Origin: Antitrichia curtipendula
Taxonomy: Eukaryota > Streptophyta > Bryopsida > Hypnales > Leucodontaceae
Direction: 5' to 3'
DNA: 64,000 nucleotides
Assembly: GCA_951230915.1 (NCBI GenBank)
Contig: OX579636.1
Coordinates: forward strand, 2,619,001 to 2,683,000
In this document: one piece after another, positions 1-48,944 of the stretch
Layout of the letters: each line of letters begins with the position of its first letter
How positions within the stretch are numbered: the first letter of the stretch is position 1
Position numbers and translations under genes: made by a program
The notes under the pieces: model-generated
Database searches by the model: none
The model's input: only the letters and a program-made list of their open reading frames with translations
Told to the model about the DNA's origin: nothing

Positions 1-1445
1 ATGGGAACCCCTCCTAACAACCCCCATGCCAACAATAGTAGACCGGTTCCGCGACATGCCCAAAGAAATGAAGGACGCAACGGAAAAGGCCGACGGATGA
101 CAGTTGCTGGCACAATATACCCTTGAACTTTTTTGAAGAGGTTGTTCATTCCAAACGACTCTCCTAGATGCGCATGAGAGCTCCGTGAACGCTTGAAGCA
201 TCGCATCTACTAGTGCAACCCCGATTTCTAGTGGCGTGCATCAACAGAGTTCGAAGAGGAAGTCGGCTTCCTCTATGAATATTCTTGACCGACCAATGAT
301 GAGCTGCCTTCAATTTTGCTTCCGATCTACACCTGCACCAAGCTCAACCGTGTCTCATCCAACACCGAGACAACGTTCGAACAAATCCACACAACGGTTG
401 AACAATTGCTCGAGGTTCTCCTATTGCGCTGCAAGGACCTCCTAACGATGCAGTTGAAGAATACACGATTGTTGGTGAAAAGGCGACACATGGATTATTT
501 TTGGTAAGCGGACTCTAAACATGCAAAGAAGGGAGAAAGGTGCTACGATTTGGACAATAGTGTCGTATAGCTACCTAAATGTTATAATTTGTATTTTCTA
601 TATTCAATGAGGGTATATTGCTTGGAAGAATGAAGTGAAAATGTACCTACCATCCTATAGTCTTAACTCTTAAAGCATCTCTAATATTTCAACAACGTTC
701 TAGGGGGATGCCATCCATGGGTCATCCCGTGTTTACAACATCGTCAATGTGTTGATCCATCCCTGAAAAGTGTTGAAGTCAATCTGTGACATGAAAGGAT
801 GCCTTTGGAGCGAACCTCGCCGCCTGACCTGCGGGAGACCACCTGAGCAATGTTACGTACAGTTTAGAGCGGCTGCTCTGAATCGTGAGCAGGGACATTA
901 TAACCTGCAAAAGTGTTTTATTCAATTGTTGCACCGAGAAGAGACCATCTTGGCCTAAACGACCGTAGGACCAAGAATCCTGCACAATAGAGCCAACGAT
1001 TACAATTCTTTGGTTAGGATTGAGGACTTCCTGATGACAATCTCCAAGGAGAGTGGAAAGAAAGAGCAACAGACTATTTGGACAACCAGTTGCTATCCAT
1101 TTTAAACTGTCAGTGCGACGGAGATAAAGATCTGTCCAGCCCTATGCCAAGTTGTCCGTTGGACTCTACTTCAATCATGCAACCATCCATGGTAGGAAAG
1201 AGCTTGCCTTCACAATATATGTGGCCATCAAGTTTTATTTTTCCTCGTCAGAGTTGAGCGGAGGTGATATCCGCGCCCGCCTCCTCCAAGGCCACGCAGC
1301 CTTCCGAGGAGCCCACTCCCTCCGACATCCGGGTTCGATGGCGCTTCGAGCGCCTCAGAAGCGGTCGAGAAGTGTTGGCTGCCCACCGATCAGAAACGCC
1401 AATGCGACGATGAGTCTGTACACGCACAAATTCCACAACTGGGCA
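1..1445. other. Region downstream of the ParB/FCP1-like gene; possible decayed coding fragments
   Basis: No intact gene is recognised. Short open stretches (about 5-110 and 235-507, plus strand) read like protein for 30-60 codons and then meet TGA codons or change frame, so they could be remnants of an old ORF. I could not match them to a family. One diverged copy of the palindromic repeat lies at 863-883. The rest, including 1150-1445, shows nothing I can name. Confidence 0.25.
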
Positions 1446-2420
1446 TCACTTTTTTTTTAATTCCCTTTTCTCTTTGGCCTTTCGAGCGACAAAGAAATCA
1501 TTCCCGGTTTTAGTGTACATGCCCACGAACTCTGGATACTCCAGGAGGAGGGATCTGTCCTGCCATCTAGCACACGCGCGCACTTTGAGTCTCAGACGCG
1601 TCTGTCTTAGGGGAACCATGAGCTCCCATAGGAACGGGTTTTGAAAGACGAATTGCGACACGCTAAGACCCTACAACAACAGTTTGTGGAGATATTGGCG
1701 CAATGACCCGCGGAGGATGGAATCAAAGTCGCTGCCCGCGTATGACAAGGGAAATATGGCGTTGTACAAGGGATTGAGGATGCTGCTCTCGGGGGAGGAA
1801 TCGATGAGCAACGTATTCGTCGAGTTCGCCCTGAAGTTGTTCAACCTGAACAACTCACTGTCCCAGACGCCCTTGTGGAGGACCTTGAGCCGCAGCTGCC
1901 CTCCCGGGTGTTCGGGGAACTGGACAAAGGTGTCTTCCGTGAGGTCCGGATCAGATTCCGAATGGACGGGGTGCGCGGGACAGGGTAATTCTGGGAGATG
2001 CGGGAGGGGTCTGCACTTGCAAAATCTCCACGCTCGTCTCTCAACAATGGAGGTGCAATCCTCCAGTGCGAGGACGCGCATGGTTCCACACTCTATGCCG
2101 CGGAAGAGGAAATCCACCATGGACTTGGCGACCTTGGACGGTAGCCTGGTCCACACGGACACGTGGAACTTCTTCACCACATTCTTGAGAAATTCCCGCA
2201 AGTCCGGGCGACAGTGAAAGGTGTATTCGTCAAAGACATGGCGCCTCCTTGGTTGGTAATCCGCCTCCGTCCCTTCCATGGGCACCGGATTGGGCAGGAT
2301 GTGCTCGACGTTCTCAATTCTGCTCAAGATCCCCTCTAATTCGAAGATCAAGAGATAACTGCATGATGGCAAAGCCACAGGACCGGGCGGCTTCGGCGGC
2401 TCGGGCGGTGGCGACGGTGC
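1446..2420 (-). pseudogene. Exon 5: FCP1/NIF-type HAD phosphatase-like domain with altered catalytic motif and in-frame TAG
   Basis: After a proline-rich lead the exon reads LLIFELEGIL, then HCRPDLREFL, HVSVWTRLPSKVAKSMVDFL and later NTLLIDSSPESSILNP. These match the order and spacing of FCP1/NIF (NLI-interacting factor) C-terminal-domain phosphatases. The defining DxDGT nucleophile motif is replaced by ExEGI (Glu codons at 2342-2340 and 2336-2334), and DD in the late IDDSP box is DS, so phosphatase activity is unlikely. A TAG at 1671-1669 falls inside the domain. The downstream in-frame sequence (SQFVFQNPF) matches the family's usual ending, so the stop is probably a later lesion. The frame ends with a lysine run and TGA at 1446. 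Confidence 0.7.
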
Positions 2421-2669
2421 CTGCGTACGCTATACCCCTTGTTCAAAGTCGATTCTATGATAAACGAATGGAGTCCACAATATCTAACATGTGACTCCCT
2501 ACACCCGAGAAGACGTGCCATGGTAACCGAGAGCTGTCCCCCCCCATTTCCTCTTCGCCTTGATTCTAATTGTACGAGAGATCCATGCCCGTCTCGTGCA
2601 GACAATCTAATTGACCAAGGGTCGCCTATAGTGAGCAAGGAGAGGTGTTGCAAGGAAATTAAGACTCAC

Positions 2670-2927
2670 CTTCTTCGCATCCGTGGAAGGGGCAGGCGCT
2701 ACTTGTTGCTTGGCCGTTACAACTTCTAGTGTGATTGCGGGATCGACCTCGGAAGGGATCGGAGGGCCCAAGTCGGCATCCATGCGAGCGTCGACTTGAA
2801 CGTGCATAGCCGGAGACTCCACTGCGATTGGATGGCGCGAAGAGCCGGTACTCGATCGACGGGGCGTTGCATCCGGACCGCTTGTGGGCAACGGGGACTT
2901 GTGGCGCAGCGAGAGAGCATTGTCATC
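2670..2927 (-). CDS. Exon 4: short Pro/Ser-rich linker exon
   Basis: An 86-codon exon between acceptor TTCAG/GATGAC (2927) and donor AAGAAG/GTGAGT (2670). It encodes a Pro/Ser/Thr-rich linker with no recognisable domain. Both ends are phase 0, matching the flanking exons, which is the main reason for joining it to the FCP1-like exon. Confidence 0.5.
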
Positions 2928-3530
2928 CTGAATCGAAAATGCAAAGAATACAATTTGAGTGCCCCGATTTACTCGGAAAGACAAACACATATCCAAATGG
3001 ACCGCAGTCACCCAAACATGATTACAAAAAAGAATCCAATATATTACAAGTAATGTACAATGTTTTTACAGACCGAGTGGTTCTTTCTAGAATGGTTCAC
3101 AAGCTACATCTACAAACTATTCTAGCTAGGTGTCACTACAGGCTTTATGCTTGGGCAGACTCGAAGGGACGACCTTCGATCGACCCGCCGTATTACCCTC
3201 ACACAGCGTCCACCCGACGACAGACTAAAAAGATGGGAGCTATGTGGAGGGGTTACCCACAGCTGGATCCTGGTCATCCCTGGGCAGTGAATCCACCGGA
3301 GCTTGCTCCTCAACCCTCGCACGGGACTGCACCGGAACGATTGCGTCCTACACGGGAGCATATTGTTGGGTGAAGTTAGCAAAGGAGGCCTCTACATCTC
3401 CTAAGTCAACTTCCAGGCTGTACGAGTCATCGTCGTCCATGCTCGCACGATGCACGGGTTCAGTGACATGCACAAAAGGAAATTGACTGAGGGCAAGGTC
3501 ATCCAATTCTGGTTCACAAGTGACACTCAC

Positions 3531-5711
3531 CGAGGTATTGGGAAGGTCCAAGGCACCCAGCATCCGTAGCCTTGACGCTGCGGTTTGCGTCGCGGAGGCC
3601 GAGTTCGTCGTGGACACGCCGGACACGTTTTGGAGTTCAATTGGATGGGGTGGAGTAAGAGCGACCGCAGGGGAGGGCGTGGACTGGATCGGTTTCGCCA
3701 TCATCCTATCTATGCTCTCCTTCATGCTCTTGATCAAATCCCGTTGCTCTTGCTGCTCCAACTGGTATTTCCTTTCCCTCTCCGCTTGCTGCCTCCTCTC
3801 TTCCGCCAGCTCCCTCTCCTTCCTCTCTTTCTTGGCCTTCTACTTGGCCTTCTTCTCTTCCTCTCCCCGCACCCTCTCCTGCTCTCTCTCCCGCTCTTGC
3901 CGCTCCCTCTCCCGCTCCTGCCGCTCCATCTCTTCGTTTTGCTTGTTGAGCAGGTCGATGGTTTGGGTACACTTCTCCACCCCCCCCGAATGCTTCTTCC
4001 TCTGGCGCTCCGAGATCCTCTCCACGAACGCGAGGCTGATGTTTGCCTTGGAGTCCATGACGTCGGGCTTCGCCTCTTCCGCCTCCACGCTCGAGCTCGC
4101 CCCTGCCTGAGTTGCGGTCCCCGTGTCCGAAGCCGATCCGCTTGCAGCCGCCGCCTTGGCCATCGCATTGTACTCCTCCCTCTTCAACGCCGCCTCGGCC
4201 AGACGCTTCACCAGAACCTCGTCATCCTCCTCGTCCAAATCAATCGGGTTGTTCTGGCTACTCCTCAGAGCCTCCTCGAGTCTCTTCTGCATCGCCCGAG
4301 TATGGGCCGCATATGCCAATTCCTCATCGGTGGGGGGAGAGAGTTCTGACATCAAGTTGTCGATGGTCACCTGTACCACTGTCAACTTCTTGAGACTCTC
4401 GCTCTCGGCAACACTCGACGCCGGGCGAAGGGACTTCAACTCCAGCAGAACACTCCTCGTCCTGCCAATCCTCTGCGCCCTAGACTCCGTTGAAGAATTC
4501 CGCGGGGAACTTCTGACATCCATCCTCACCTTCTTCAGATCCGCATGCTGCTCGTTCGAAAGGAAGACCTTCAACGGGTCCAACTGCGTCTGCAGATCTT
4601 CAATCTGCATTCTGGTGGGAGGCGGAGGAAGTGCATGCTCTACGTGAGCCGAAGTCGATGGTGTCGTCGGAGCACGAGGAGCGGGAACCCGGAAGACTTT
4701 AGCAGTGGCGCTCACTTCAGAGCGGCCGGTCTGAACCTCACCGACGGGAGCGGGGGAATCAAAGGAAAGAGAGACAACAGCTTTGGACTGCGCTCTCTGG
4801 TTTGGGGGAGTGACAGACTGAGAGCCAGAGAGGGGGGAAAGCGATGGTGTATGATAACGCCCGCTCATGACTGCAGCAAGCGGAGAGGAAGGATGGCAAA
4901 TGGGAAACTGGGAATCCAGTTCAGAGCGGTCGCTCTGAACTGCGACAGGAGGAGTTGGAGGGGGGGGATGAACGGGAGGTAGTGGAGAGTCTAGTTCAGA
5001 GCTCTCGCTCTGAACTGCAGGGATGGGAGATCTTGGGGGATCGGGGGATCGAGGAGAACCTGGATTAGACAAGCCTCTCTGGTCATACTCGGACGAAGGC
5101 AGGTTGTCTCGGGACTCCACAGCAAGCGAGACTATTTGCACTTCATCTTCTCCAGGGACGAGGGGGGGCTCCATTGGGGAGAGCGGCTGAACCAATTCAG
5201 AGCGACCGCTCTGAACCGTGCCTGGGACTGCCATCCGAGAGGGAGATGAGTCGTCAGGTCGCTCCGACTGCACAGTGGCATCGCTTTCTGCGGGCATCTG
5301 CGCGGACCTCCCCCTGACGACAGAATCAATGACGTCATTGTGAACCGACGCTGATGGATTTGGTCCGATCTCATCATCCTCATCGTCTTCCTCGTCGGCA
5401 TCATCTTCCTCTTGGTCATTGTCCTCGTCGACGTCATCGTCCTGTCGGTTTCCGTCATCATCTGATTCATCGTCATTGGACATGTTGAGGGGCTCGTCCG
5501 CCGTCGACGTTTCTGCGTTGGGGGCGAGTTCCTCCTCCAATGCGGCAACGCCCTTCTTCGCCTTCATCTGGTCCTCGTACGTGTACCTCAATTTCCACCC
5601 CGGGACCAGAACATCAGGCCACATTTGGGCTCCAATGCGGTTGTGCGCCGAGTGACGTGCCATGGACTTCTCTGTGGCAAGCATAAGGGAGACGGAGCTG
5701 CGGGACAACAT
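3531..5711 (-). CDS. Exon 3: acidic, Pro/Ser-rich and coiled-coil region carrying in-frame palindromic repeats
   Basis: The exon opens with the end of the methyltransferase-like fold. An Asp/Glu run of ~45 residues follows (about 5460-5350), then ~250 residues rich in Pro, Ser and acidic residues. That stretch holds repeated VQSGRSEL-like octapeptides encoded by the 20-base palindrome. The tail is a long Arg/Glu/Lys/Gln coiled coil. A TAG at 3842-3840 interrupts the coiled coil, which then resumes in the same frame (KAKKERKERELAEER). A strong donor, TCG/GTGAGT, lies at 3531/3530. The frame stays open to 3348, so retention of that stretch is an alternative. No enzymatic motif is seen. Confidence 0.55.
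4716..5215. repeat. Palindromic 20-mer copies inside coding sequence
   Basis: Four copies, at 4716-4735, 4920-4939, 4995-5014 and 5196-5215, match TTCAGAGCGGCCGCTCTGAA with one to three changes. On the minus strand all four are read in the same frame, giving VQSGRSEL-like octapeptides (VQTGRSEV, VQSDRSEL, VQSESSEL, VQSGRSEL). Two further in-frame blocks, VQSERPDD (about 5250-5275) and VMSGRYHT (about 4845-4870), look like decayed copies. Confidence 0.85.
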
Positions 5712-6420
5712 CTGCAGGCACAAATGGCGTTAATGACTCCGAACACATGAGATGCACAAATAAATCTGGACAAGCACTGTATATAAATGCTAGAGTCGTC
5801 GGTAATTACCGTGCATGCGGAGATGGCCTTTGCCCCAGCAAAGACGAGTATTGCGGTCCCTTGATCTCTACAGAACTTGTCGATGAAGCGGAGGTAGACT
5901 TCATACCGAAGTTCGTACTTTGAGCTAATCTCCGGATTATCGTAACGGCAGGTTTCATGGGTCACGTACAAACTTTTGTCGTTTTTGAGGTCTACGTCTT
6001 GTTCTGCTGAGAGTCTTGGCACACGTTCCGCAACATTCACAATGTCAGAGTTTGTGAACTGCTTGATGTTTCGCTGCAAGTACATCACCTTGTCCTTGTT
6101 CCTGTCCTTGAAGCCCGGTTCGCCTTTGGCACACACATAGTTGCACTCCCGCCGAATAGCGTGATCTGGGAAGAACTCCTTCACAAGCTGATCCACCGCA
6201 GCCAACCGCTTGGAATTGAAGATCAACATCCACGTGTGCACATTCTTCGACATCACGGACTTGGATACCCTCTCGACCTCCTCCACGATCTTCATGATTC
6301 CATAGTTGATCTCCATGTTCTCGATCTTCGGGAAAAGTCGGAGATCCATGATGCCTACCTCGCAAAACTGGAGGTTGGCGGGTGAGTTGGCGTCGCGGAG
6401 GACAGACCACGTCTTCCTCT
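5650..6420 (-). other. DNA N6/N4-methyltransferase-like segment (diverged)
   Basis: Across the exon 2-3 junction the translation has the layout of a beta-class DNA amino-methyltransferase. A strand-like stretch ending VGIMDL lies where motif IV (DPPY) would be. A helix and strand follow (VHTWMLIFNSKRL). Later comes a late SAM-binding-like box, VFAGAKAISAC (about 5843-5811), where active enzymes have FxGxGT. After the junction, ATEKS..ARHSAHNRI fits the usual (I/L)E(x)D...A..R ending. The DPPY residues and the glycines of motif I are not conserved, so I would not expect activity. ParB-methyltransferase fusions are known in bacteria and phages; their presence here is inference. Confidence 0.45.
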
Positions 6421-7243
6421 TCTCAAGGCATAGATAGTCCTCGAAGTTGGAATCGTCCCGAATCCATCGACAAATACTCGCCCGCGAGCAATTCTTGACG
6501 TACTTGAATCGCGCGGTATTATTCACGACTCGGTCCAAGGCCCTCACCAACCTTGCGGAGGGCTCGTCTTTCTTATTGCCCGACCGCACCTCGGACTTCA
6601 GGTACTCCACATCAATTGTCTGGAGGTGCCACATGTGAAACCCGCAGATGTTCAACGCGGCCTTGTAGTCCCTCCAGCCCTTGGGGTCCAAGTCCCCATT
6701 CTCGAGGAAGACACTGGCTGCTTCTATGATGCCCATATCCTTGCCCCTGTCCACCAACTCCTTGTACAGCACATTCTTGTGCTTCCTGTTTGTGCACCAC
6801 GCGGCGACGGGAAGCGTCTTCGCCCATGTCGAAGGCTTCTTTATGATGTACACCTTTGGGGGGACGTCCAGAATCTTCTGAGCCAGCTCCCCGACTGCTA
6901 AATCGTCCAACCCGTGTAGACTCTTCATCATATTGTTGGTGATGGGTTGGAATTTATACGGCTTCGTGCTACCATCGGTTGTTGTGATTTCGTTGAAGGG
7001 ACCACCGGAGTCGATGTCGTATAGGGATCCCGACTCGTGACACGAAAATATTCTCTGCCACAGGGACCAAGTCTCCTCCGAGGCCATGATGAATTTCCGC
7101 TCCCCCATCCAGTCCAGGTCATACGACGCTCTCGACTGCCCCTTCAGCACGCCGGTTGATTCGAAGCTTTGCTCAGCCTTCTCCCTAAACTCCTGCACGA
7201 TTCAAACGATGTAAGATGAGAATATCGATACAACAGGAATCAC

Positions 7244-7381
7244 TTCAGAGCGGCCGCTCTGAAGCATATGATGAGGACAACTGTGGATGAAATCACTTCA
7301 GAGCGGCCGCTCTGAAGTTAGACAAGCCGATTGTTGAAGTCGGCATAGCAATCAAAAACACTTCAGAGCGGGCGGTCTAAA
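7244..7381. repeat. Three palindromic 20-mers in intron 1
   Basis: Copies at 7244-7263 and 7297-7316 are perfect TTCAGAGCGGCCGCTCTGAA palindromes. The third, 7362-7381, is diverged and abuts the splice donor region. Almost the whole 197-bp intron is made of these units and their spacers. Confidence 0.9.
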
Positions 7382-7389
7382 TTGCTTAC

Positions 7390-9157
7390 CTCATAGGCCT
7401 TGAAATTCTCGCCTTGCTCCTTCGCCCTCGTGTTCTTGCGGCACTGCGCTAGCTTGCGTGCGTCTAGCCAAAGGTATCGGCAATGCTTGATTGTAGCCGG
7501 GAGGGATGACAAGTAAGGTCCGGTGACGTTGCCATCGTTGCACTTGCAGGACAACGCGTGGCAAATGATTCTTCTCATTTGACCAAACGATCTCGCATGT
7601 CCACTTCTGCACTCGCTTCTTGACCTCTTCGTCGTCCACGCATGCTGTCCCTGAGATGATTTCCTTGGAAGCTTTCCATGTGTGCTGGCCGTTGATGATC
7701 TTCATGGGGAAGACATTCACGCAGTCTTGCCAACACCTTGGTCTCGTCGACATGTTGGGCATTACAGTCAAGATCTGCTTGCTGAAGTTCACCTTCACCA
7801 TTCGCTCTTGCACAGTCATGACACCTTTCTTTTCCAAGGGCTTGAATATCATGCCCGAGTCGTCGTCACACGGACTCATGTCGTCCACATCAAGCTCGAA
7901 GTATTTTCCTCTCCCGAAGATGTACATGTAGCTGGAGAGCTCCTTGAATTTCTTGTTCGCCACTACTTCGGCCTTCAAGCGTTTCCTCGCCTCCTCTTCG
8001 TCACTTCGTCTTGGCTCCTTCTTGATTTCCAGTTCGACGAAGAGCTTCTCTGGAACGGAGGATTTGTTGAAGGGCACTGTTTCCGGGTTGTCTACCCAGT
8101 GACCGTTTACCTTCTTGATCGCTTGTTTGTGCACCTCCTCTTCGGACACCTCGGTGGATTCCGGGATATCGCTTTGTTGGGACGAACTGGGCACACCTGC
8201 AGTGTCTTCGGCATCAGTCTCCCGTTGCTGCCGTCGACGCCTACCCTCCGTTTCTTCCTCCAGCAATGTTTCCGCGGGGGTACGGTTGGTTTTCCTCTTC
8301 ACCTTCTGCTTGGGGCGTGCCGACTTTTTGGGTTTAGACGCAGTGGTTGTGGATGGCGGTGGAGCCATGACGTTGGCTGACACCACGGCACCTCGTTCTG
8401 AAGTCGCTTGGGAGCGGGCAGCAGCCGTATCATTGATTGGCTCCGCGGCACCTACTGGAGGAGGCGCAGAGGCCCGAGCGGCTGCCGTGGCTGGGGCGCC
8501 TGCGAGAGCTGACGACGCCGGAGGCCGTGCACGGGTGCCTGCTCCGGAACTGGAGCCTACTGACTTCTTTGACTTCTTGGGGGGCCGGTTTTGCGAATCC
8601 ATGGGGGTGCTTCCTACGTCCTGCGTGTCAGTCGTACTCGTTAGCGATGCAATGTGGAGGTTGTTTGCATTGTTCAAGTACGTCTTCACAGCGAAGCCGG
8701 TTTGTACAAAGTCCCCTCCTAGTGCTTCGCATATCGATTTGGTGTCCATCATCAGGGCTTGGAAATGAGGTGGAACGTTATCGTAGTTCTTGATTATTCT
8801 TTTGTGGGAGAAAGTCATTTCATCTTCTACGCGGATGACGATGACACCGAAGGTGCTGTTTGTTGCATTCACTACGTCTATAAGAATGGCCTCCTGAAGC
8901 ACATTGATATTAATGACTATGATGTCCTTGAACGATTTCCATCTAGGGTCTCCGTGCTTCGTAAATCCCAGCGCTAGACTGAAGACAGGCGAGTCGTGAT
9001 GGTAGCTCATCTCCACCGTCCACAAGGCCTTCGTCGCCAACAACTGCAGCGGAGTTTTCTCTTCTATGTGAGCTTTCCAGCACTCGTGCACGCGGTCAGG
9101 CGCCAGCCGTTTTATATAGCCTATGAGTGGTGGCTTGCTCTCCAAAAAGGACTCCAT
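7390..9157 (-). CDS. Exon 1: N-terminal region, low-complexity linker and ParB/DGQHR-like segment (frameshifted)
   Basis: The first ~165 residues (starting MESFLESKPP) form a compact unknown region. A linker of about 170 residues rich in Ala, Pro, Ser, Thr and Lys follows, including a basic patch (KPKKSARPKQKVKRK) that could serve nuclear import. Near 7690-7679 is INGQHT followed by an Ala/Lys-containing helix and then WTCEIVW, which resembles the ParB-N / DGQHR core (GxHR-like box, helix, hydrophobic strand). Past about 7578 the plausible protein moves to another frame (continuing IICHALSCKCNDGN up to a GAG/GTAAGC donor at 7390/7389). The shift is consistent with one extra base or loss of two. 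The ParB link is motif-level inference. Confidence 0.55.
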
Positions 9158-9184
9158 GGCACTGTCCACAGGAATTCGTACGAA

Positions 9185-9379
9185 TTAGACCACGCGGTCT
9201 AAATTGGAATTTGCAATAACGTTCTTTTATCCGCGTCAGCGGAAATCCAACTTAGAGCGCGCGTTTTAGAACTTACATTACCCGAAGAGTTCATTAGAGC
9301 GGGCTTTCTGATCCTTTCCGAACTAGTGCAACAAATATACCGAGGAAATGACGCAACGGTTCAGTGCGACCGCTCTGAA
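9185..9379. repeat. Diverged palindromic repeats upstream of the ParB/FCP1-like gene
   Basis: Four related palindromes sit just 5' of the start codon: 9185-9202 (TTAGACCACGCGGTCTAA, a perfect palindrome of different core), about 9251-9271, about 9292-9311 and 9360-9379. They share the arms but vary in the core, as if older than the copies further upstream. Confidence 0.7.
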
Positions 9380-9695
9380 TCGTATGCGACTTCTGACTTT
9401 TACATTGGTTCCTTTGGAAGGGATTCATATTTAGTAGGTTTCTATTCTAACGAGTTTTAGCTAATCGATGGAGGGGTTCCTAGATTAGTGAGGGTACTCT
9501 ATGCTAGTCTAGATGACTATCGTTTCTATTAAATGAATGTCTTGTGACTTTTAGTTCGTGATCCCTATGCCTTATTAGACATTGGATATATCCAAACGAA
9601 CGATACCCTGCGATCTGTCGTACTTCTAGCCCGTCCTTGTTCTAGTAGTGGATTAGAATGGGTGACTTGATTGTATCCTCGTTTGCTGCAGTTGT

Positions 9696-10120
9696 TTCAG
9701 AGCGGCCGCTCTGAACCTCTATGCTCATCCATGGTGGATATGCACATTGATGAAGTTCAGAGCGGCCACTCTGAACCTGTGCTCGTCCATGGTGGGTATG
9801 CACAATGATGAGGTTTAGAGTGGCCGCTCTGAACCTATGCTCATCCATGTGGGGTATGCACATTGATGACGTTCAGAGCGGCCGCTCTGATTCTCTTCAA
9901 TTCCTGTAGTCCAGACGACCAGGCAACAGTTCAGAGCGGCTGCTCTGATCCTCTTCAATTTTCATAATTCAAACGTCCGATGAGATCAGAGCGGCCGCTC
10001 TGATCCTGTTCGCATCCGAGAAGTTGGGCTACATTAATCGAGTTCAGAGCGGCCGCTCTAATCTATAATCTAGTCATCCCTTTTATGGAATTCGTAGAGG
10101 TTCAGAGCGGCCGCTCTGAT
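9696..10120. repeat. Array of eight palindromic 20-mers, ~58-bp period
   Basis: Copies begin at 9696, 9756, 9814, 9872, 9930, 9985, 10043 and 10101, with spacings of 60, 58, 58, 58, 55, 58 and 58. The first four spacers are themselves near-identical (containing CATCCATGGTGG and TGCACATTGATGA), so this is a true tandem array of a palindrome-plus-spacer unit. Short open frames across it are by-products of the repeat. Confidence 0.92.
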
Positions 10121-11170
10121 CCTTTAGAATGACCGCGGGTATAGGCTACCTTTCTAAAATGTACCTAACGGAGACATGTGTAAGTGTTATTTTTAGTACC
10201 TGAATGAGAACGACTGCCTCCTTCGACTGTTGCGTCCGGATTGAGCACTCCCTCCTCCGCACTGCACTTAGGAAGTTGTTTTTCAAATGAATCTGGTTGC
10301 ATGACAATTGATATGCACTTCTTAGGGCCACAATGTGAAGCATTGCACACATAATTGTATGGTACACTGATACATTCAAAGGAAACCATAACGGAGCAAA
10401 TCAATGATGCAAATGAACTCGGCAAACTGCACACGTTCAAGCTTGCAGGAAATTGAACTGAAACCCTAGAATTGCCATGGAATTGAAGAATTCACAAAGG
10501 TGATGGAACTGAGACTTCAGTGGCTTGAGAAATACCTGGAAGCACACACACGATCGACTGCACTCTTCGTCGTGGAGGATGAAGCACCGCGACCGCAATG
10601 ACAAAGGCTCCACGAAGGCTCCACAATGTCGCTGAAATTTTAGGAGAAACCTAATTAGCTAGCTGTACATTCTATCTGGCTTTCAATAAACCCAAAGACT
10701 GCACCAAAGTAAAGCTATACAACAAAAGAATCAAGATACAAAACACAACAGAGCACAAAAACACAAATGAAAAAACAAGGGAAAACAAAAACAAAACAGA
10801 GCACAGCAAACGAAAAACGTACCCAGTGTGGAGCTTCAATGACGATCGGCAGGGATACACACTCCTTCACACAGCGTTGAGCGGATGAGCGCACAAGTTG
10901 CCAAGACGCGCAGCAAATCGCAAATCGTAAAACAAAACAAAACACAATGGAAGGCGCGCGACAGTGCGGGACGAGAGCAAACACAAGAAAGTGGACATTC
11001 AACGCCCGCGTTGGTAACCCTCGAAGGAGCGACGACGACGACCAACCAAGGCAAGATTGACGGACCTCATTCCGAAGCTACACCGACCCTCTGTCAAATC
11101 TGAAGCAGTCCCGAGCCTCCACGAATTCACCAAACCTGCCATACATCTACTAAGTACATGTTCATTCATG
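10121..11170. other. Intergenic stretch, no recognised gene
   Basis: Open frames here are short and not protein-like. The A-rich segment 10680-10810 and the GC-richer 10810-11110 have no homology I can name. It may include the promoter or 5' leader of the minus-strand gene. Confidence 0.4.
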
Positions 11171-11174
11171 TTAA

Positions 11175-11810
11175 CCCCTAAATGCCCAAGGCTTGTTTCG
11201 AGCTCCTTGAAATTTGCTCTAAATTGAACAAAATACCAACATTTTGATAAATTGTATCAATTTTGTTTGAATTGTAACCGTATAAATTCAAACTAGACAT
11301 GTTAGAGATCTCATAGGAAAAGAAAACACAACAATATCACTTACGGAGTGAAAGATTATAATGTTTGACCATGAGGGTGTTAAAATTGCACAAATCTTTC
11401 AATCCTCTTTTCACAAGTTAAATCTAAAATGTTGGTGACCAAAAAAATATGATGTTAAAGGACCTAACATGTATAACCCCAATCAATTTATAGCTTCTTA
11501 AAATCTACTCTATAACTTTTTTAAATGAATTTTGAATGTGATGTTTTCTCCAAGATCTAGTGTATTTGAGGCTCATTTCCAAGAGCTCTCAACACTACGA
11601 GAGGTCAAGATTGCAATGGGTACCCTTGCACAAAATCTTGAATAGAAAAATCACTATCATTTATTTTCAAGATCGGATTTTTAATGCTAAACTAGACTTC
11701 GAGAAGAACTTTCCAAATATATAAACTACTAAAAATAGCAATTTGATTAGGTTTTATTTAACTTCAAAGTTTTGCAAACACCAGATTTGGGTGCCTCGGG
11801 CATTTAGGGG
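11175..11810. mobile_element. TTAA-flanked MITE, family 1, copy A (636 bp)
   Basis: It starts CCCCTAAATGCCCAAGGC after TTAA (11171-11174) and ends GCCTCGGGCATTTAGGGG followed by TTAC, a one-base change from TTAA. TTAA target duplication and CCC-starting terminal inverted repeats are the hallmark of the piggyBac superfamily. There is no coding capacity. It is closely similar along its length to copies at 17577-18119 and 31276-31913. Confidence 0.88.
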
Positions 11811-13639
11811 TTACGGTCTACTAGGAAGAATGACTGGATTATTCATTCTAGTTGAAGCCAATAATTTGAAATTTTTTTCTATGCAATGATTGTTGTGAAA
11901 ATTTGTTACCAATTCTTGATTTTGCTGCTTAATTGGTCCAAAAACATTTCTAGACTACGATAAGTGCCTCAAACAATAATCCTCTTTTTCAAACTGCTAG
12001 GTGGTTTGGAAATGGACACTATGTGGAGTCGTGGACTACCAACAATGTGAGAACATAATTAAGACTTGCCAAATATTGCTTAATACTTTACCAATGGACG
12101 GAATAAGAACCATAGTTGTGGGTCCATTTTAAAGCCAGAGGGGGCCACTCCATTTTTCTAAATGAGAATTGATTGTCCAATTTCCATCTTACACATGGGT
12201 AAAGAAAGTAGGGTCCGTTAAAGTTTAATATGGGTTGCATCTAGGAACCCCTGTATATTATTTTTTAAATGCCACACTTTTTGTTTTTGTTCAAGCCATA
12301 TCTTTTTCTAGATTACACGCATATGGTTTTTGTGAAACTCAGAATCATAAATACTTGCATACAATGTAATTCTCTAGAAATTCATAAGTAATTCACAAAT
12401 TTGTTACAAAACATGAAACCACTTGTGTTTCATTCCATTTGAATTATTCTTCAAATGAAAAACAAGGGAAAATGTTTTGGGCACTCGAAACATAAATTTT
12501 GTAAGATATGTATCTGTGGAACTGTGCAATTGAAAGTATATAAATATGTATTACACTCCAACATTATGTTTCCAATTCTTGAATGTACCTTTTAAAAATA
12601 GATTCAGTATATGAATAAGTACGTAAATTAAAAACTTGAAAATATTAATGAACGATAACAAAATTAGCCATGATGATAACAAAACTCCCCACGTCGTTGG
12701 TTATTCTTTTTTTAACAGTGTGTGAACTTTAATTCAACTCTAAGCTTTAAAAATACTTGTCTCCATCCTTTAAAGTTATTTTAGATCGTGTAAACACCAA
12801 AAATGTCTTCATTTTCATTTCAAGAGTAACATTGAATGCTTGATGAAAAAGCCTAATTATTTTCTGTATGTGACATTTAAAACTTTTTAGAAAATAGAAA
12901 ACAATATATTGTCATCCATAATTTATGGAATGCTCTAGATGCTTCTTTCCAGGATTTGACCCCAACAATTTGAATTGCAATTAACAAAGTTGAGCTTCTA
13001 CTCCAATTCCAAATTTTTCAACAACGCTAGTTTGTGAGGCTCAAAATGCGAGCTTAAGAGCTGTGAGCGTACATTTTGTGAGCCCAAAGATTGACTTTCA
13101 AAAAGTTTCAAATTTTTCAGTGTTAGGAAAAAAAAATCCGAATATATTTCAAAGTTCTAGGTAGGAAATAGTGAATCTATAAACTTTTTATAGTGGACCT
13201 ATGACTGCGGACCTGGGGCCATGGACCTATTATCGTGGACCTATTATCGTGGACCTATAAATAGTTCAAAATATTAATTTTTTCATTCCTACAATCTTTA
13301 TAGGTATATTCAATACATAGAACGGTGACCTTTAATTATCCCATATCGATTGAGATTACCAATATAAGCTAATATAAGAATACTTCAGATACATGATTAG
13401 GCAAGCTAAAGATCGACGTAAGTTGACTGCCACGCATCATTGTAGTAGACTACTACGTCCGTCTTTAGTTTTTGTACTTCATTCAAATTATAATTCTAAA
13501 AATTATTTCTGGTGATGACGTTTACTGCCATTTCATTTACTAATAGGGATACAATAGAGAATTGGAATTTCCAAAATAAACTAATATAAAAAAACTTGGA
13601 ATAGTTGTTTACAATACCTAGGGATCAATGTTAACCCTA
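11811..13639. other. AT-rich intergenic DNA, no gene seen
   Basis: No ORF with protein character. A small direct repeat of GTGGACCTATTATC occurs around 13190-13255. Otherwise nothing recognised. Confidence 0.4.
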
Positions 13640-13828
13640 TGTAGCACTTGGGACCCCAGATGAGACATTTGGGACCCCTAAGTGTAGTACTCGGGGCTCC
13701 AGATGAAACACTTGGGACCCTCAGGTGTAACACTTGGGGCCCAAGATGAGACACTTGGGACCTTGACGTGTAGTACTTGGGGCCCAAGATGAGACACTTG
13801 GGACCTTGACGTATAGTACTTGGGGCCC
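13640..13828. repeat. ~45-bp tandem repeat, about four units
   Basis: Units combine a CACTTGGGACC half and a GTAGTACTTGGGGCC half in alternation. The last two units, about 13730-13828, are almost identical. An open frame across it on the minus strand is simply the repeat read as peptide. Confidence 0.8.
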
Positions 13829-13859
13829 CTGTTGAAACTTTCTTTAAATGACCATCATT

Positions 13860-14720
13860 TCTTTAAGGAACCAAAGGATTTTGGTTTGGATCCTATAACT
13901 TTAATTTTGAATGGTACTTTGGGTTTTTTTTGTAAAGATAGAAAATTACAATAGCTTTTTTGAAATATAATTTTATTTTTATAGATGCTCGAGAGCAAAA
14001 GTTATACCATAAGAAGACAAAAAATGACTTCAACATGCCCTCACAAAAAAAAAAAAAAAAATTGAAATAATTTTTTTGATAACTCTATCTTATAGACTGT
14101 ATTATTGTCTGCATCAAAAGCTTTTGTTCATTCCATTTGAATTTGTATATTAAAACTATGGTGCATCTTCTTTTGCAAGCAATCACAACATCTTCTTGAA
14201 ATTTTTTTGTATACTTAGCTAGGATTCATTTATAAGCTCAATTTTTATTGTTTTCCAAACAAAAGATTCTATAGGATTTAATTTGATTTTAGCACAATCT
14301 CACCATTGGAATCAATGTCTTTTGATTCCATCTTAGAGCTATGAATTTGGAGCTTGTAACCTACAAACTATTTATCTAATATTAATTTTACCCGACCTTG
14401 TTGCATCACAATACCTTCAACAAGTGTGATTGCTTAAAGGTCTAAAATTTAATCCATTATGAAATAGTCAAATATCATATTAGAGCTAGTTTTTTTGTTT
14501 TAAATTGTGTTTAATTATCAATCTTATATTTCTATTATGTGACACTATAACTATCATTCATTATGAAAATTTTCACTTTGTGCGATTCAAAATTGACATA
14601 ATTATAATTTTTGGGACTAAAAGTAAAAATAAATTTGTAAATATAATAAAAATAATTCAATTAATTTGAAATATTTAAAAAAAATACAAAGAGCAATAGA
14701 AATTAGTGTGATAACTTCTC
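13860..14720. mobile_element. Decayed relic of TTAA-MITE family 2
   Basis: Segments here, such as the one around 13930-14010 and the CATCTTCTTGAAA / AGGATTCATTT pair near 14185-14230, line up in order with the intact family 2 element at 39344-40276. The terminal repeats are no longer recognisable, so the limits are approximate. Confidence 0.6.
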
Positions 14721-14789
14721 AATTAGTTATTTTATTTTGTACATCCAAAACACACTTGGCAATGACTTTCAAGTCAAATTTACTATTAA

Positions 14790-16096
14790 CCCTTTAGTGA
14801 CCATGGTTGATTTGGGGGGCGGGCGTATTTTTTCAAGAAAGTGAACTTTGTGGCCACTCTAAAGATGTAGTCTTAGATCAAACCATACAAGGTGTTTCCA
14901 TGAGGGAGATTCTCCAACCTTACAAAAAATCAAACTCATCCAACGGTACAAATCTCTATAAATAAGGTAGAAGGTCCATAAATGAACCTTTTAAGGGCTA
15001 AAATTGAATTTTGGGGAGGTGAAACATCTTTTAATATTTTTTAGTAAATTTTCCACAAAAGACAAGTAGAATAGGCATCTAAGGTAGAACAGCCCAATTT
15101 CGTCAGTTTCCCAATTCCGTTGCCTATGCTTTGGCCCCAATTCCGTCAACTGTAAAATCTATATGCATTCACTTTCCTGACAAATTTCAGTGCATTAATG
15201 CCTAAAGGACTAACGTGTCAATCCTTCACTGGTGGGAACTTAAGTGCCAATAGATACATGTTAAGATGGTAATGGATTGTTCATGAGACAATTTTGACCC
15301 GACTCTATGCACAGTTTTGAACTTTTTAGGGCAGCTTACTTTGAAAATTCACAGAAATTACAATTTTGATCCGAAAATTATAATTCCACTTGGGTTTGAT
15401 TTGTGAAACAACCACACAACTCTGAAAAATATGTACCTCTCTTGAAGTTGGCCCAAAGATAGTCAGATTGCAAATCAGTATGGTAATAGGTTGTTCTACC
15501 TTAACCCAAGTAGTTTCATATTTTTCAAGCTTTGTGAAATTAGTTACAAATTTTTGAAGTTCACAAAAAATAGTCATCTGTGGTCATCAATGCGAATACC
15601 CTTCTAAAATGTGCAGATTTGGTACATTGAAGAAAGTGAAATGTACCTCTACATCATGTTTGCTTCTAGAGCCTTGTTCGAGTTTGAATTGCTTTTCTGA
15701 TAAATCAAAAATCAATGATTTGAATGTCCCTTTAGAATTTGCGCTACATAAATACCAATGCATAAGTTTACTTTGGGCATTCATGAGATTACAAAGAAAC
15801 ACTTATGCCTTGTCAAGACATGAAGTTACAAAAAAATCTCACAATGTGGTTGACATTATTTTGTATTTTTGTTGAATACTTTCCATTTGAAGGTCCAGGC
15901 CATTTGAGTTTGCAACCTCATTGCTAATTCATCAAATTGAATGCTCCAACTCCCTTAAAATTGGTTTTGTTTGAAGCGCATGAAGACACTCTAATTGCGT
16001 TACTCTTTGAGTTTTTTGTGATCAAATGTATTTGGAATAGCATTAGACCAAGAGTCCCAAAATCGACCACAAAATGGTCAACCGGTCACTAAAGGG
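14790..16096. mobile_element. TTAA-flanked element, family 3 (1,307 bp)
   Basis: Bounded by TTAA at 14786-14789 and 16097-16100. The ends are CCCTTTAGTGACC and its exact reverse complement GGTCACTAAAGGG. It is a piggyBac-type non-autonomous element without coding capacity; the ORFs inside (15300-15880) have no protein character I recognise. Confidence 0.85.
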
Positions 16097-16100
16097 TTAA

Positions 16101-17572
16101 GCTAAATTCATCCTATTATATACTTAAAGTATAATGAAAAATATAAAGTTTATATTTTTCATGGGTGAAAAAGGGTGTTTTCTATTGACAATTATTTTTC
16201 TATAAATCTTGCAAAAAAAATCAAGTAACTATAATTTAAAAAAATAGAAGATAGAAATAAAATTATATCAATTGGAAATTAGATTTAGATTTTTTTTTCT
16301 TTTTAACATAAATGAAAGTTAGAATGAAAAATATCACTTTGTAATTGAAGTTTAAAATAAAAATTTTGAAAGGATAAAAGTTGAATGAAAAAAACACAAT
16401 ATGGTGAAATACGGATCTTAATACTTGGAGCTTGTGATTGCAATAGTTTTTGGTAAATATTGAGAAAGATTAGAGTTTATAATATGGACTTCTTTTTGTT
16501 TCATAATGTCAAGATAAATTCTAAACTTGTGAAACGTTAGAAATAGTCATTTAATCTTCAGAGGATGTAGTCCCCACGAAAAAGAGAGCCACCAGAATGC
16601 TTTATTATTGGACGGATAGTTGCATTCCTTGTTTATTTAAGTGAGCAGGCATGTCATCTATTGGTCACTTTTGGCCTTGGCGTCTTTTTAAGGATTAAGT
16701 TAAACAAAGGAACATGTAGGACTATTGTGTATTTTAACAATTTAGCTTTTGAAGGATAGATTTGATATTCTAAGACTTCAAGAGTACAAATTTTCACAAA
16801 TGTAAAGTGCATTTGAATCACATCATGTATAGTTAGTGTACTATTTTGTGATAGAAATGGAAGGTTTACATTGCACAATTCTAAGGAGAGAAGCCTAAAA
16901 ACTCTTCTATAAATGGTACACCACAAGTCCAAAAAAAAGGTGAAAATGCACTTTTATTGTCATTTAATCAATGCACTTGGTCAAGTGCAGCATTTATAAA
17001 TTGTATGTTGTTCATAGTTCACCATCTTTACACTCAACTACATAAAATTGCTCCTTTTAATTGTGTGTAAAATTCATCTCATCACCAATAAAGGGTTTGT
17101 ACTTTACCCCATGATGCACCCCAAACACCTGCACCACCACCTCCCAAAAAACCAAAAAAAATTTTGGGTTCTATTTTTCCCTCATGCTGAAGGCTTCCTG
17201 TCAACCCGCAAGAGGTCCATAAAAACAAGAAGACAGTCACTATATAAATCTCAATCTCAATCTCAATGGACCAACTATATTTGATTTTAAACAAACCCAT
17301 CTACAGTTTCTGTTTTTCTTAACATTTAGATCATCAAATGAAGATGAATCACCCTAGGAGGTCCCACAAGAGGACAATAATCAACTAATCAATAATTTGG
17401 TATAATTAAGGTCATTCGTGCCAGAAATAAAATTTATTGTGACAAAGATACTATTAGATATAAAAATAATCCATATTCAATAATCCAATTTGGCAAGATT
17501 TAAAAAAATTAAAATAAAAAAAATCCAACAGCAACACATCAAGATGAAATTATCATTACCCTTTTGTTGGTC
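16101..17572. other. AT-rich intergenic DNA, no gene seen
   Basis: Poly-A/T runs and short non-protein ORFs only. A short ATCTCA triplet repeat occurs near 17248-17268. Confidence 0.4.
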
Positions 17573-17576
17573 TTAA

Positions 17577-18119
17577 CCCCTAAATGCCCAAGGCCTATTT
17601 TGAGCGTCTTGGAATTAGCTCTAAATTGAACAAAATGCCAACATTTTGGTAAGTTGTATCAATTTTTTTGAATTGTAACTATACAAATTCAAACTAGACA
17701 TGTTAGAGATCTCATAGGAAAAGAAAACGCAATAATATTACCTATGGAGTGGAAGATTGTAATGTTTGACTATGAGGGTGTTAAAACTGCAAATGTAATG
17801 TGAAGTCTTTCAATCCTCTTTTCACAAGTCAAATCTAAAATGTTGGTGACCAAAAAAATATGAGGTTCAAGGTCCTAACATGTATAACCCCAATCAATTT
17901 ATGGCTTCTTAAAATGTAATCTATAATTTTTTTAAATGAATCTGATTGTGATTTTTTCTCCAAGCTCTAGTGTATTTGAGGCTCATTTTCAAGAGCTCTC
18001 AATACTACGGGAAGTCAAGATTGCATTGGGTAAACTACTAAAAATAGCAACTAGGTTAGGTTTTGTTTAACTTCAAAGTTTTACAAACACCAGATTTTGG
18101 TGCCTCGGGTAATTAGGGG
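17577..18119. mobile_element. TTAA-flanked MITE, family 1, copy B (543 bp)
   Basis: Flanked by TTAA at 17573-17576 and 18120-18123. It begins CCCCTAAATGCCCAAGGC and ends GCCTCGGGTAATTAGGGG. It is the same family as 11175-11810 but lacks roughly 100 bp in the right half. Confidence 0.9.
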
Positions 18120-18123
18120 TTAA

Positions 18124-18916
18124 TACCTGAAATTCCGGCTGCAGCGCCAGTGAAAGCCATGATTTTTCTACTCGGCCGCCAAATATTGAAATGTAGTGTC
18201 AGTTCCCTCCTTAAATTAGCCTATAGCACAATGGCACGAGGTAGACACGCGGCAAAAAAACAAAACTCTGCCACAAGATTGAAGGACTGTCAGAAGACAC
18301 CGTACCGAAAGGAATTCCATAGCCCATGTCCGTGGCACCCGGAAGACGTGGGTTGTATCGAAATGACTTCGGTCGGCGCTCCTTGTTTCATTTTTTTTTT
18401 GAGAATCATGTCGTCGTCGTGTTGAGGGACTTTTTTCGCCGCTTTTTCCATTCATGTTCGACGTCGCTGCGCTGTCCTTCAGTACCTTCTCCATTGCTCC
18501 GAAGTTGCCGGCGACATTGGAGCGTTTCACTCAGGTATGATTCACTTCACATTGGATCTTGAATTTGATTGTGATTCTGCTCAATGATTGTGCAGAAACG
18601 TTCCATCGTCGTGAATGCACGTTGTCGTCTGCATTTGTGGGAAGGGTGAAAGTCACAATGCCTTACTTGATTAGTGAATTTATGGTATTTACTAGCATCA
18701 TTGTGATTTTCTTCTGTATGTGATTCATTCTCCATTCTCATTGTATAGCAGTCTGTACGAACGCACATTGCAACGGTTGAATCAGAAATTCATACGATTA
18801 TGTTATTTAGTGTAGCTCTTATGAATTATTGTGACCTTGGTTCCCAATCCTGGAGACTTTGCATTCAACTATCGTTTTGTCCCTATCAAATCGTGAACTA
18901 AGCATGCCCATAACAG
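18124..18916. other. Leader region before the palindrome array, no gene recognised
   Basis: GC-richer than the DNA to its left. Short frames on both strands (about 18216-18562) do not resemble any protein I know. It may be promoter or 5' leader of the transposase-like gene that starts at 20107. Confidence 0.35.
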
Positions 18917-19720
18917 TTCAGAGCGGCTACTTTGAAGTGATTTCTGAAGGTCGATTTTACCTGAACTAACTTCGGAATCCCTTCCTGCTTGCGTACGTGA
19001 GGTCTCGAATTCCCAGTAACACTTCAGAGCAGCCACTCTGAAGTGAATTTTAGTTGTGGATTTCACTCTTCAACGATCCAATACCTTAACCATGTAGTCT
19101 TGTTCACGGTTCAGAGCGGCCGCTCTGAAGTGAGTTTCAGTTGTGAATTTCACTCTTCATCGATTTCTTACTTTAATCTTGAAGTCACATTCACGGTTCA
19201 GAGCGGCCTCTCTGATGTGGATTTCAGTTGTGAATTTCACTCTTCATCGATCTCTTACTTTAACCGTACAGTCTCATTCACGGTTCGGAGCAACCGCTCT
19301 GAAGCGAATTTTAGATGTGGATCTCTTCACAACGTTCACTTACTACGTCCGTGCAGTCTCGTTCACGGTTTAGTGCGGCCCCTCTGAAGTGAATTTCAGA
19401 TGTGGATTTCTGTTTTTAATAATGTCGTACTTCATCCTTGGAGTCGCGTTCACGGTTTAGCGCGGACCCTCTGAAGTGAATTTCAGATGTGGATTTCTCT
19501 TCTCAACAATGTCGTATTTCGTCCTTGGAGTCGCGTTCACGGTTTAGTGCGGCCCCTCTGAAGTGAATTTCAGATGTGGATTCTCTTCTCAACAATGTCG
19601 TATTTCGTCCTTGGAGTCTCGTTCACGGTTTAGTGCGGCCCCTCTAAAGTGAATTTCAGAAGTGGATTTCTTTTGTCAGCCGTGTCGTACTTCATCCCTT
19701 GAGTCGCGTTCGTGGTTGAC
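18917..19720. repeat. Array of palindromic 20-mers, 86-87-bp period
   Basis: Palindrome copies begin at 18917, 19023, 19110, 19197, 19283, 19369, 19456, 19543 and 19629. From the second copy the spacing is 87, 87, 86, 86, 87, 87 and 86. The spacer is conserved (GTTCACGGTT before, GTGAATTTCAG after). The copy at 19110 is perfect; towards the right the left arm becomes TTTAGTGCGG, losing symmetry. A further degenerate unit is visible near 19715. Confidence 0.92.
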
Positions 19721-20106
19721 TGCGTTAGTGTCTAATTCGTTCATAATGCGTTCCTCTTGGATTGGTTGGTACTCATATTCAAAATGGTCGTCCCGTGAAG
19801 CTTGTGTTTCACATCCATCCGTTGATGGAGTGCCTGAAGTCTTCCGTTTCATGCCACGCATTATTGTCCACTCTATGTGAGGCATGCCGTCACTTCTTTC
19901 CGTGACAAAATGATTGATGGGGCTTCTAGGACCGCCTACCTTATGTCTTAATGCGACATATTTTCACTCGTCTTATGTTTGGCAGGTTGCGGAATTCCTA
20001 GAGCCTGAATGGAACTGCGGATCCCAGTTGTTCAACGTTTCACTCCTGTTATCACCGTGACTGCAATTGACTAAGCATTGCATACCCCTCCAGACTTTAT
20101 TCTCTT

Positions 20107-23100: not shown

Positions 23101-23277
23101 TTCAGATGGAAGATTGACCCCACCGCTATTCAAGCCGACTACGTTTCCACGGATAGCATTATGGCATCGTGGAAACCAAAGAAGAACGAAGGCCGTAGCT
23201 TCATTGCACCCCGGCAACAAGTTCAATTTGCAGCCAAGCATTTGCGTCGAATTGCAGCAGAAGAACAAGACATGTGA
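20107..23277 (+). pseudogene. DUF7869-type transposase-like gene, broken by one stop and one frameshift
   Basis: Exons are 20107-20154, 20264-21235 and 21401-23277, with GT..AG borders, both introns phase 0. The start MSTLSDFPSSESDDDE is followed by a Glu/Asp-rich lead. A Cys-containing segment (CCKEECTRKF) precedes a VEGIDICPTAWRILHNI region. The third exon carries LHIQMDNS, then RENKNRY and VSFMIVGHTHDDLD, the arrangement I associate with DUF7869 proteins of plants and animals, which appear transposon-derived and RNase-H-like. A TGA at 22079-22081 sits between MDNS and RENKNRY. Near 22290-22300 the frame changes, consistent with loss of one base, and coding resumes with IPHLIEEVPDFKAYV to a TGA at 23277. 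The C-terminal ~130 residues look like a separate small module. The family name is from memory and should be checked. Confidence 0.75.
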
Positions 23278-38000: not shown

Positions 38001-38341
38001 TCGTGGATAGTTGGTTGAACAACTCATGGGTGCTCATGAAGCATGATAGGGTCACTAGGCAAGAGAAGGTGTACCGGCAGCATCTACCGTATCACATGCA
38101 GGTGGCGGAAAGCTTGATTGCTCCTTGGTTAGATCAGCCGTCTACGTGCAAGGTGGATTGCCTTAGTCACCCTACCGCAATTCACTTCAGTAGCCAATGG
38201 CCAAACCTGTGGCGAAGGTGCATAGTGTGTAAGCGGAAGACGCGGTTCAGATGTTCAACCTGCGCTGGTGCCCACATGTGTGTTGATCGTTGCTTTGTCA
38301 AAGTGCATACCCAAAGAAAGTGGGCTTACCGTGTTACTTGA
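35057..38341 (+). pseudogene. piggyBac transposase, element 1 (DDE_Tnp_1_7), with one stop and one frameshift
   Basis: A first exon to 35886 encodes an Arg/Gly-rich region with repeated RGRGRG. Donor CG/GTAAGT and acceptor GTCAG/T (36017) join it in phase to the second exon. That exon has a TGA at 36438-36440 and then the transposase core. Catalytic Asp codons are at 37353 (TCDEIMVAYRG), 37587 (VVCDNWFT) and 37922 (RGVDVVDQ), the piggyBac DDD set. A 2-base TC/CT insertion near 37880 shifts the frame just before the third Asp; coding resumes as VEYQNHMRGVD. The C-terminus has a Cys-rich zinc-finger (CIVC...CSTC...CVDRC, 38222-38310) as in PGBD proteins, and ends at TGA 38341. The start codon is uncertain (35057 is the first in-frame ATG). 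Confidence 0.9.
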
Positions 38342-48572: not shown

Positions 48573-48944
48573 GGGTTGTCTATCCGGACGTGACGTGGAG
48601 TTTTCACGTCCGGATGTCCGTCGGCGTCAGTCCGGACGCATCCTGACGCGTCAGAATTGCGTCAGGATCAAAATTTTTTTTTTTTTTTTTTTTTTTTTCA
48701 AGGACGGCCTGTCCGTCGACCTGGACGGACCGTCTGTCCACAGGGACGGACCAGCCGTCCACAAAAAAAAAAAAAGATTTTTTTTTTTTTTTTTTCCGAG
48801 GACGGCCTGTCCGTCGACCTGGACGGACAGACTGTCCAAAAAAAAAAAAAAAAAAAAATTCTGGATCCTGACGGACGCCGGGGTTGAATCCTGACGTCCA
48901 TCCGGACATCCTGACGGACTGACAGGACGTGACGGGGACAACCC
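48573..48944. mobile_element. 372-bp MITE with 12-bp target duplication, nested in piggyBac element 2
   Basis: The ends GGGTTGTC and GACAACCC are flanked on both sides by TGAATTTTTACA (48561-48572 and 48945-48956). The interior has two copies of a GGACGGCCTGTCCGTCGACC block (near 48702 and 48800) between long T and A runs, and many GTCCG/CGGAC motifs. The target length suggests a Mutator-like or unclassified DNA element. The poly-Phe/poly-Lys ORFs here are artefacts of the homopolymers. Confidence 0.8.

What the first reader, a model, noticed from the sequence alone, without database searches (positions are those of the whole stretch)
863..19648. Family of ~30 short GC-rich palindromes with a NotI core
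TTCAGAGCGGCCGCTCTGAA, a perfect 20-base palindrome whose centre GCGGCCGC is a NotI site, recurs about 30 times in two blocks (863-10120 and 18917-19648). I found none in the 44 kb to the right. Copies lie in coding sequence, an intron, upstream DNA and tandem arrays. Many show C-to-T or G-to-A changes at CpG. This looks like a mobile or amplified palindromic element comparable in behaviour to Rickettsia palindromic elements, which I do not know to be described in plants.
Basis: partly seen in the sequence, partly recalled or inferred. Interest (0 to 1): 0.85.

Follow-up and report, generated by a model that had tools for sequence, protein, structure and literature searches.

The report
Palindromic sites of a giant transposon
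The short repeated palindromes are not a mobile element of their own but look like protein-landing sites of a 27-kilobase jumping gene and its miniature offspring in a plant genome, kept at similar places in related elements while their core letters change from family to family.

Summary
The palindromes are real: 24 at up to 3 mismatches (26 at up to 5), 0 expected, none right of 19,648. The 400-Mb genome has 1,875 within 3 mismatches, control 1. They are parts of transposons. The window's copies lie in one 27.2-kb element (C4:2,615,738-2,642,958; window to 23,958) with inverted ends ATGGGCAATTTCGTTAAAWTGGCGG and 4-bp target duplications; three more copies were compared end to end. The 50 exact sites listed are in five giant elements (one assigned by spacing) or in ~320-bp MITEs, about 53 and 40 bp from the ends. 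The transposase carries DUF7869. In a diverged relative two intron palindromes are 19/20 identical where flanks are 49-54%. A third family has another core, TTCAGACCGCGCGGTCTGAA, at corresponding places. Best reading: family-specific sites for an element-encoded dimeric DNA-binding protein, for transposition and control of both divergent genes; binding is inferred. The divergent gene may be a ParB/methyltransferase-like accessory (motif lead, unproven). CpG decay is not enriched.

The parts
1..23958 (.). right 24 kb of a 27.2-kb TIR transposon (left end lies outside the window at C4:2615738); right TIR 23927-23958, right TSD CAAT 23959-23962
   Evidence: matches to copies A, B, C, mostly 95-99% and lower across the 87-bp array, that stop at the same two ends; A has an extra ~3.4 kb; TIR and TSD
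863..882 (.). palindrome downstream of gene 1
   Evidence: aligned counterpart in element D at L022:1038, 15/20 identical
4716..5215 (.). four palindromes in gene-1 exon 3 (4716, 4920, 4995, 5196), all in one codon phase, read VQ[ST]xxSE
7244..7381 (.). three palindromes in the gene-1 intron (7244, 7297, 7362)
   Evidence: two have 19/20 identical counterparts in D while flanks are 49% and 54%; the third has none
9360..10120 (.). nine palindromes upstream of gene 1, eight of them in a 58-bp tandem array
18917..19648 (.). nine palindromes upstream of gene 2, mostly in an 87-bp tandem array
   Evidence: site number differs among copies (9, 16, 20, 9 in W, A, B, C)
1671..2429 (-). ORF with NIF/FCP1-type phosphatase domain (PF03031, E 5e-10)
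3840..9184 (-). gene 1, three long exons (about 7391-9157, 5817-7201, 3840-5712; splice sites judged by eye); motif-level resemblance to ParB and to a methyltransferase
   Evidence: ORFs; homologues; motifs; profile tests weak or negative
20264..23277 (+). gene 2, DUF7869 transposase; interrupted in this copy (frames 21347-22081 and 21985-23277), single open frame in copy A
   Evidence: fold

Best explanation
The palindrome is a cis-acting site of a family of giant TIR transposons with a DUF7869 transposase and 4-bp target duplications, and of MITEs with the same ends (that it is part of them is shown). It is most likely bound by an element-encoded dimeric protein, two TTCAGAGCG half-sites per site (inferred). 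In MITEs the site sits next to each TIR, where binding would help assemble the transposition complex. In full elements the sites sit before both divergent genes, in an intron and in a linker exon of gene 1, where binding would regulate the element's own genes (inferred).
For: Element with TIR, TSD and copies (TSD CCAG/CCAG in D2). 4-bp TSDs in 19 of 20 first-type MITEs and 8 of 9 second-type MITEs by script. The 50 listed exact sites assigned to giants or MITEs. Two intron palindromes 19/20 identical between W and D against 49% and 54% in flanks; 5 of 8 W sites tested have a counterpart of 15/20 or better. Corresponding layout with another core in the C218 family. Second MITE type has variant palindromes at the same end positions. 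Changes in single sites mostly break symmetry (85 of 94 changed pairs), as for half-site binding and not for a hairpin. Between families both arms of the core differ together.
Against: No binding was measured. W has no palindrome within 4.1 kb of its ends and D none within 3.3 kb, so 'next to the TIR' holds only for MITEs. Three of 8 W sites have no D counterpart. D and MITE L042 show no TSD, C only 3 of 4 bases. Homogenisation by gene conversion could mimic some constraint. A 10-kb stretch at another DUF7869 gene (L059) and two 3.6-kb ones (L025, L026) have no such palindromes, so the site is not general to DUF7869 genes.
Confidence: 0.72

Rival explanations
1. The 20-mer is itself a mobile palindromic element that inserts into any DNA, like Rickettsia palindromic elements.
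For: Sites in exon, intron and intergenic DNA; genome-wide spread.
Against: No lone site among the 50 exact sites listed (seven of the 50 assigned to D2 by spacing only). TSDs flank the MITEs and giants, not the 20-mer.
Confidence: 0.03
2. The palindrome works as an RNA or DNA hairpin, or as a CpG methylation target, not as a protein-binding site.
For: Perfect palindrome with two CpG; sites in an exon and an intron.
Against: Only 9 of 94 changed position pairs stay complementary; no loop; no CpG transition excess.
Confidence: 0.1
3. The palindromes are neutral satellites spread by tandem duplication and carried along passively.
For: 58- and 87-bp arrays; site number in the gene-2 array differs among copies.
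Against: Isolated intron sites kept at 19/20 where flanks are about 50%; corresponding layout in three families and sites at the ends of two MITE types.
Confidence: 0.08
4. The sequence is selected as a protein motif (VQSGRSE) in gene 1 and in an open frame across the gene-2 array.
For: All 4 exon sites in W and the 2 with up to 4 mismatches in D are in the same codon phase; open frames cross the arrays in C and D.
Against: Introns, MITEs and the 58-bp array are not bound to code it; one of the other two frames has a stop, so the phase is partly forced; the window's frame across the array breaks at 19387.
Confidence: 0.05

Closest known systems
CACTA (En/Spm) transposons with subterminal repeats, e.g. 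the 20.5-kb soybean Tgmt* (PMC2613891, passages read)
   Same: Large plant element; repeated motif in direct and inverted copies, proposed to bind an element-encoded protein; motif differs between subfamilies; defective derivatives carry it too
   Different: CACTA ends and 3-bp TSD there, ATGGGC ends and 4-bp TSD here; DUF7869 transposase here; in the full elements here the sites lie before the genes, in an intron and an exon, kilobases from the ends
Sola2 superfamily (4-bp TSD; PMC3627910, passages read)
   Same: 4-bp target duplication
   Different: No reference Sola2 transposase was on hand to compare; the TSDs in those passages are AT-rich, here not (e.g. GACT, CCAG)
Sola1-1_Ec32 of Ectocarpus, 21.5 kb, with a ParB-like/DNA methyltransferase gene opposite the transposase (PMC12477816, passages read)
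   Same: Giant element; long accessory gene on the strand opposite to the transposase; motif-level ParB and methyltransferase resemblance here
   Different: Sola1 there; domains here are not detected by profiles; the words 'palindrom' and 'subterminal' do not occur in that paper's main text
Bacterial ParB/parS (recalled)
   Same: Palindromic sites in several copies near a possible ParB-like gene
   Different: No partition role known; domain assignment weak
Rickettsia palindromic elements (recalled)
   Same: Palindromes in coding and noncoding DNA
   Different: Those are longer and dispersed singly (recalled); these travel inside transposons

Membership tests
Rickettsia palindromic elements | stand-alone dispersal of the palindrome | tested here: not met
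TIR DNA transposon | TIRs and target duplications, multiple insertions | tested here: met
   of six giants looked at, perfect TSD in W, A, B, D2; 3 of 4 bases in C; none in D
MITE | short, TIR, TSD, no coding capacity, many copies | tested here: met
   ~320 bp; 19 of 20 with 4-bp TSD; 291 and 296 matches to the two site contexts, controls 0
CACTA | CACTA ends, 3-bp TSD | tested here: not met
   ATGGGC ends, 4-bp TSD
DDE/RNase H transposase | RNase H-like catalytic fold | tested here: inconclusive
Sola2 | 4-bp TSD | tested here: met
Sola2 | transposase homologous to Sola2 | not testable with these tools
   no Sola2 reference protein on hand
ParB-methyltransferase accessory protein | ParB-like domain | tested here: inconclusive
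   ParB-box-like motif around GQHTW in all 7 aligned sequences; phrog_723 'ParB-like partition protein' in 2 of 7, best E 0.13; Pfam no ParB; PF02195 no match in the genome; model pLDDT 42.5
ParB-methyltransferase accessory protein | methyltransferase domain | tested here: inconclusive
   motif-I-like FAGAKAISAC; Pfam none; hhalign to methyltransferase-like exons of this genome prob 3.4 and 0.65, reversed controls 0.3 and 0.1

The most novel reading that the evidence does not exclude
A eukaryotic, parS-like site system: gene 1 encodes a ParB/methyltransferase-like protein that loads on family-specific palindromes inside its own giant transposon and its MITEs, marking them for regulation, escape from silencing or transposition, and site core and protein specificity have co-diverged at least once (GCGGCCGC to CCGCGCGG).
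Probability: 0.2. Interest if true: 0.85.

Novelty: new variant of a known kind. Interest (0 to 1): 0.6.

Why it matters
It gives DUF7869 proteins a concrete likely role as transposases of giant elements and exposes a natural set of candidate binding sites whose core has switched between families while the layout stayed. That makes co-evolution of a transposon protein and its site testable, and gives candidate target sites for transposon-encoded ParB/methyltransferase-like proteins, which PMC12477816 suggests bind and modify their own transposon (passage).

Tried and rejected
Rejected: independent palindrome mobility, CpG-decay signature, hairpin selection. Led nowhere: DUF7869 in papers, 0; Pfam, NCBIfam and PDB profile searches with gene 1; hhalign; AlphaFold model of exon 1, too poor to search; PF02195 in the genome, no match. 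PF01555 gave 112 matches, best E 0.049, one over the cut-off with its neighbours; none of those listed is in the window's element; the six loci read carry methyltransferase-like exons of other repeats. Core-scramble control TTCAGATCGGCCGATCTGAA was badly chosen: it lies 2 mismatches from the first core, so the hits shown among its 471 are almost all first-core sites; it had 0 exact hits. Host not identified: the only organisms named among the 120 listed relatives are the mosses Ceratodon and Physcomitrium, so a moss is an inference.

Papers: passages read of PMC3627910, PMC2613891, PMC12477816, PMC6431247, PMC11704416; others seen only in search listings.

Full report
OBSERVATION. The 20-mer occurs 24 times at up to 3 mismatches in the window, none in 100 shuffles, and 26 times at up to 5 mismatches with none in the reversed window. 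All lie in the two blocks named. Genome-wide (400,189,583 bases, 303 contigs) 1,875 sites lie within 3 mismatches, against 1 for the control.

THE ELEMENT. Comparing the window and its left neighbour with three other loci on C1 (A, B, C) showed collinear matches, mostly 95-99% identical and lower across the 87-bp array, that begin and end at the same points; A has about 3.4 kb extra. The ends are ATGGGCAATTTCGTTAAATTGGCGGTATTCC on the left and nearly its complement on the right, flanked by CAAT/CAAT (window), CAAT/CAAT (A), CTAC/CTAC (B) and TGAT/CGAT (C). The window element is C4:2,615,738-2,642,958, 27.2 kb. The left TIR sequence occurs 525+505 times within 3 mismatches, control 0. A diverged relative, D, with about 62% amino-acid identity in gene-1 exon 2, has related ends but no matching TSD; its sister D2 has CCAG/CCAG.

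MITES. These have ends related to the giant's TIRs and one palindrome about 53 bp from the left end and about 40 bp from the right. Including one whose sites are not exact there are 20, of which 19 have perfect 4-bp TSDs; L042 does not. The two site contexts match 291 and 296 times genome-wide at up to 3 mismatches, controls 0. A second MITE type (9 read, L044-L052) has variant palindromes such as TTCAGACCGTGCACTCTGAA and TTTAGAGTGGGCACTCTGAA at the same subterminal places; 8 of 9 have a TSD by script, the ninth (L052) by eye.

CONSTRAINT ON THE SITES. W and D were aligned over gene 1. Two intron palindromes are 19/20 identical where the 80 flanking bases are 49% and 54% identical. Of eight W sites, five have a D counterpart of 15/20 or better (863, 4716, 4995, 7244, 7297) and three do not (4920, 5196, 7362). 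Exon sites share one codon phase in W (4 of 4) and D (2 of 2 with up to 4 mismatches).

CORE SWITCH. A protein search with gene-1 exon 2 gave 87 matches (92 of 373 candidates scored): 31 near-complete at 92-100% (W family), 9 at 61-63% (D family, one partial), 7 full-length at 50-53% on contig C218, 2 at 38%, plus pieces and distant ones. Two C218 copies were read for 400 bases just upstream of exon 2: they carry TTCAGACCGCGCGGTCTGAA or near variants (4 and 3 sites). This second core occurs 486 times within 2 mismatches, control 0; 15 exact ones are shown in the capped list. Around the C218 exon at 84035-85408 the listed sites lie 0.8-1.2 kb to the left and 0.25-0.38, 2.7-3.4 and 14.2 kb to the right; in W the corresponding distances are 0.6-1.1 kb and 0.04-0.16, 2.2-2.9 and 11.7-12.4 kb. 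So the layout is largely kept while both arms of the core changed together. Only one C218 copy was measured in this way. The second core also shows, degenerate, in W at 9185 and in MITEs.

MECHANISM. Shown: mobile element, MITEs, sites kept between families, family-specific core. Inferred: binding by a dimer to TTCAGA-type half-sites, use in transposition and in control of both genes. Against a hairpin role, 85 of 94 changed position pairs are not complementary. Against CpG decay as a signature. Against generality, stretches at other DUF7869 genes (L059, L025, L026) lack such palindromes. Against a simple end-binding role in the full element, W has no site within 4.1 kb of its ends and D none within 3.3 kb.

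NOVELTY. Repeated candidate binding sites in large plant transposons are known from CACTA elements (PMC2613891, passages). I saw no description of the DUF7869 setting, this site layout or a core switch in ten paper searches; only asked for DUF7869 itself, none asked for core switching, and the library lacks most subscription journals and preprints.

Noticed in passing
window 36441-38018 and 50763-52457: Two DDE_Tnp_1_7 transposase ORFs (PF13843; piggyBac type by recall), outside the palindrome element.
   Followed up: no
window 11171-11813, 17573-18120, 14793-16097: TTAA-bordered short elements between the two genes, seen by eye; the first two resemble one another, and the stretch is shared by copies A, B and C.
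   Followed up: partly
L064-L069: Other dispersed repeats of this genome encode methyltransferase-like exons (PF01555 motif region, 112 matches, mostly weak).
   Followed up: partly
contig C218: 3.4-Mb contig with at least 7 copies of the third element family, apparently clustered there.
   Followed up: no
L062 (C1:9940551-9940750): A further MITE-like end beside copy B with palindrome TTCAGACCGCTCGGTCTGAA close to a TIR-like end, read by eye.
   Followed up: partly
window 44986-46544: ORFs that look like a ClpP protease gene (recalled from the translation, not tested).
   Followed up: no
window 42663-43940 and 48702-48763: Tandem arrays of 177-bp units and of a GGACGGACCGTCCGTCC-type 21-bp unit.
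   Followed up: no
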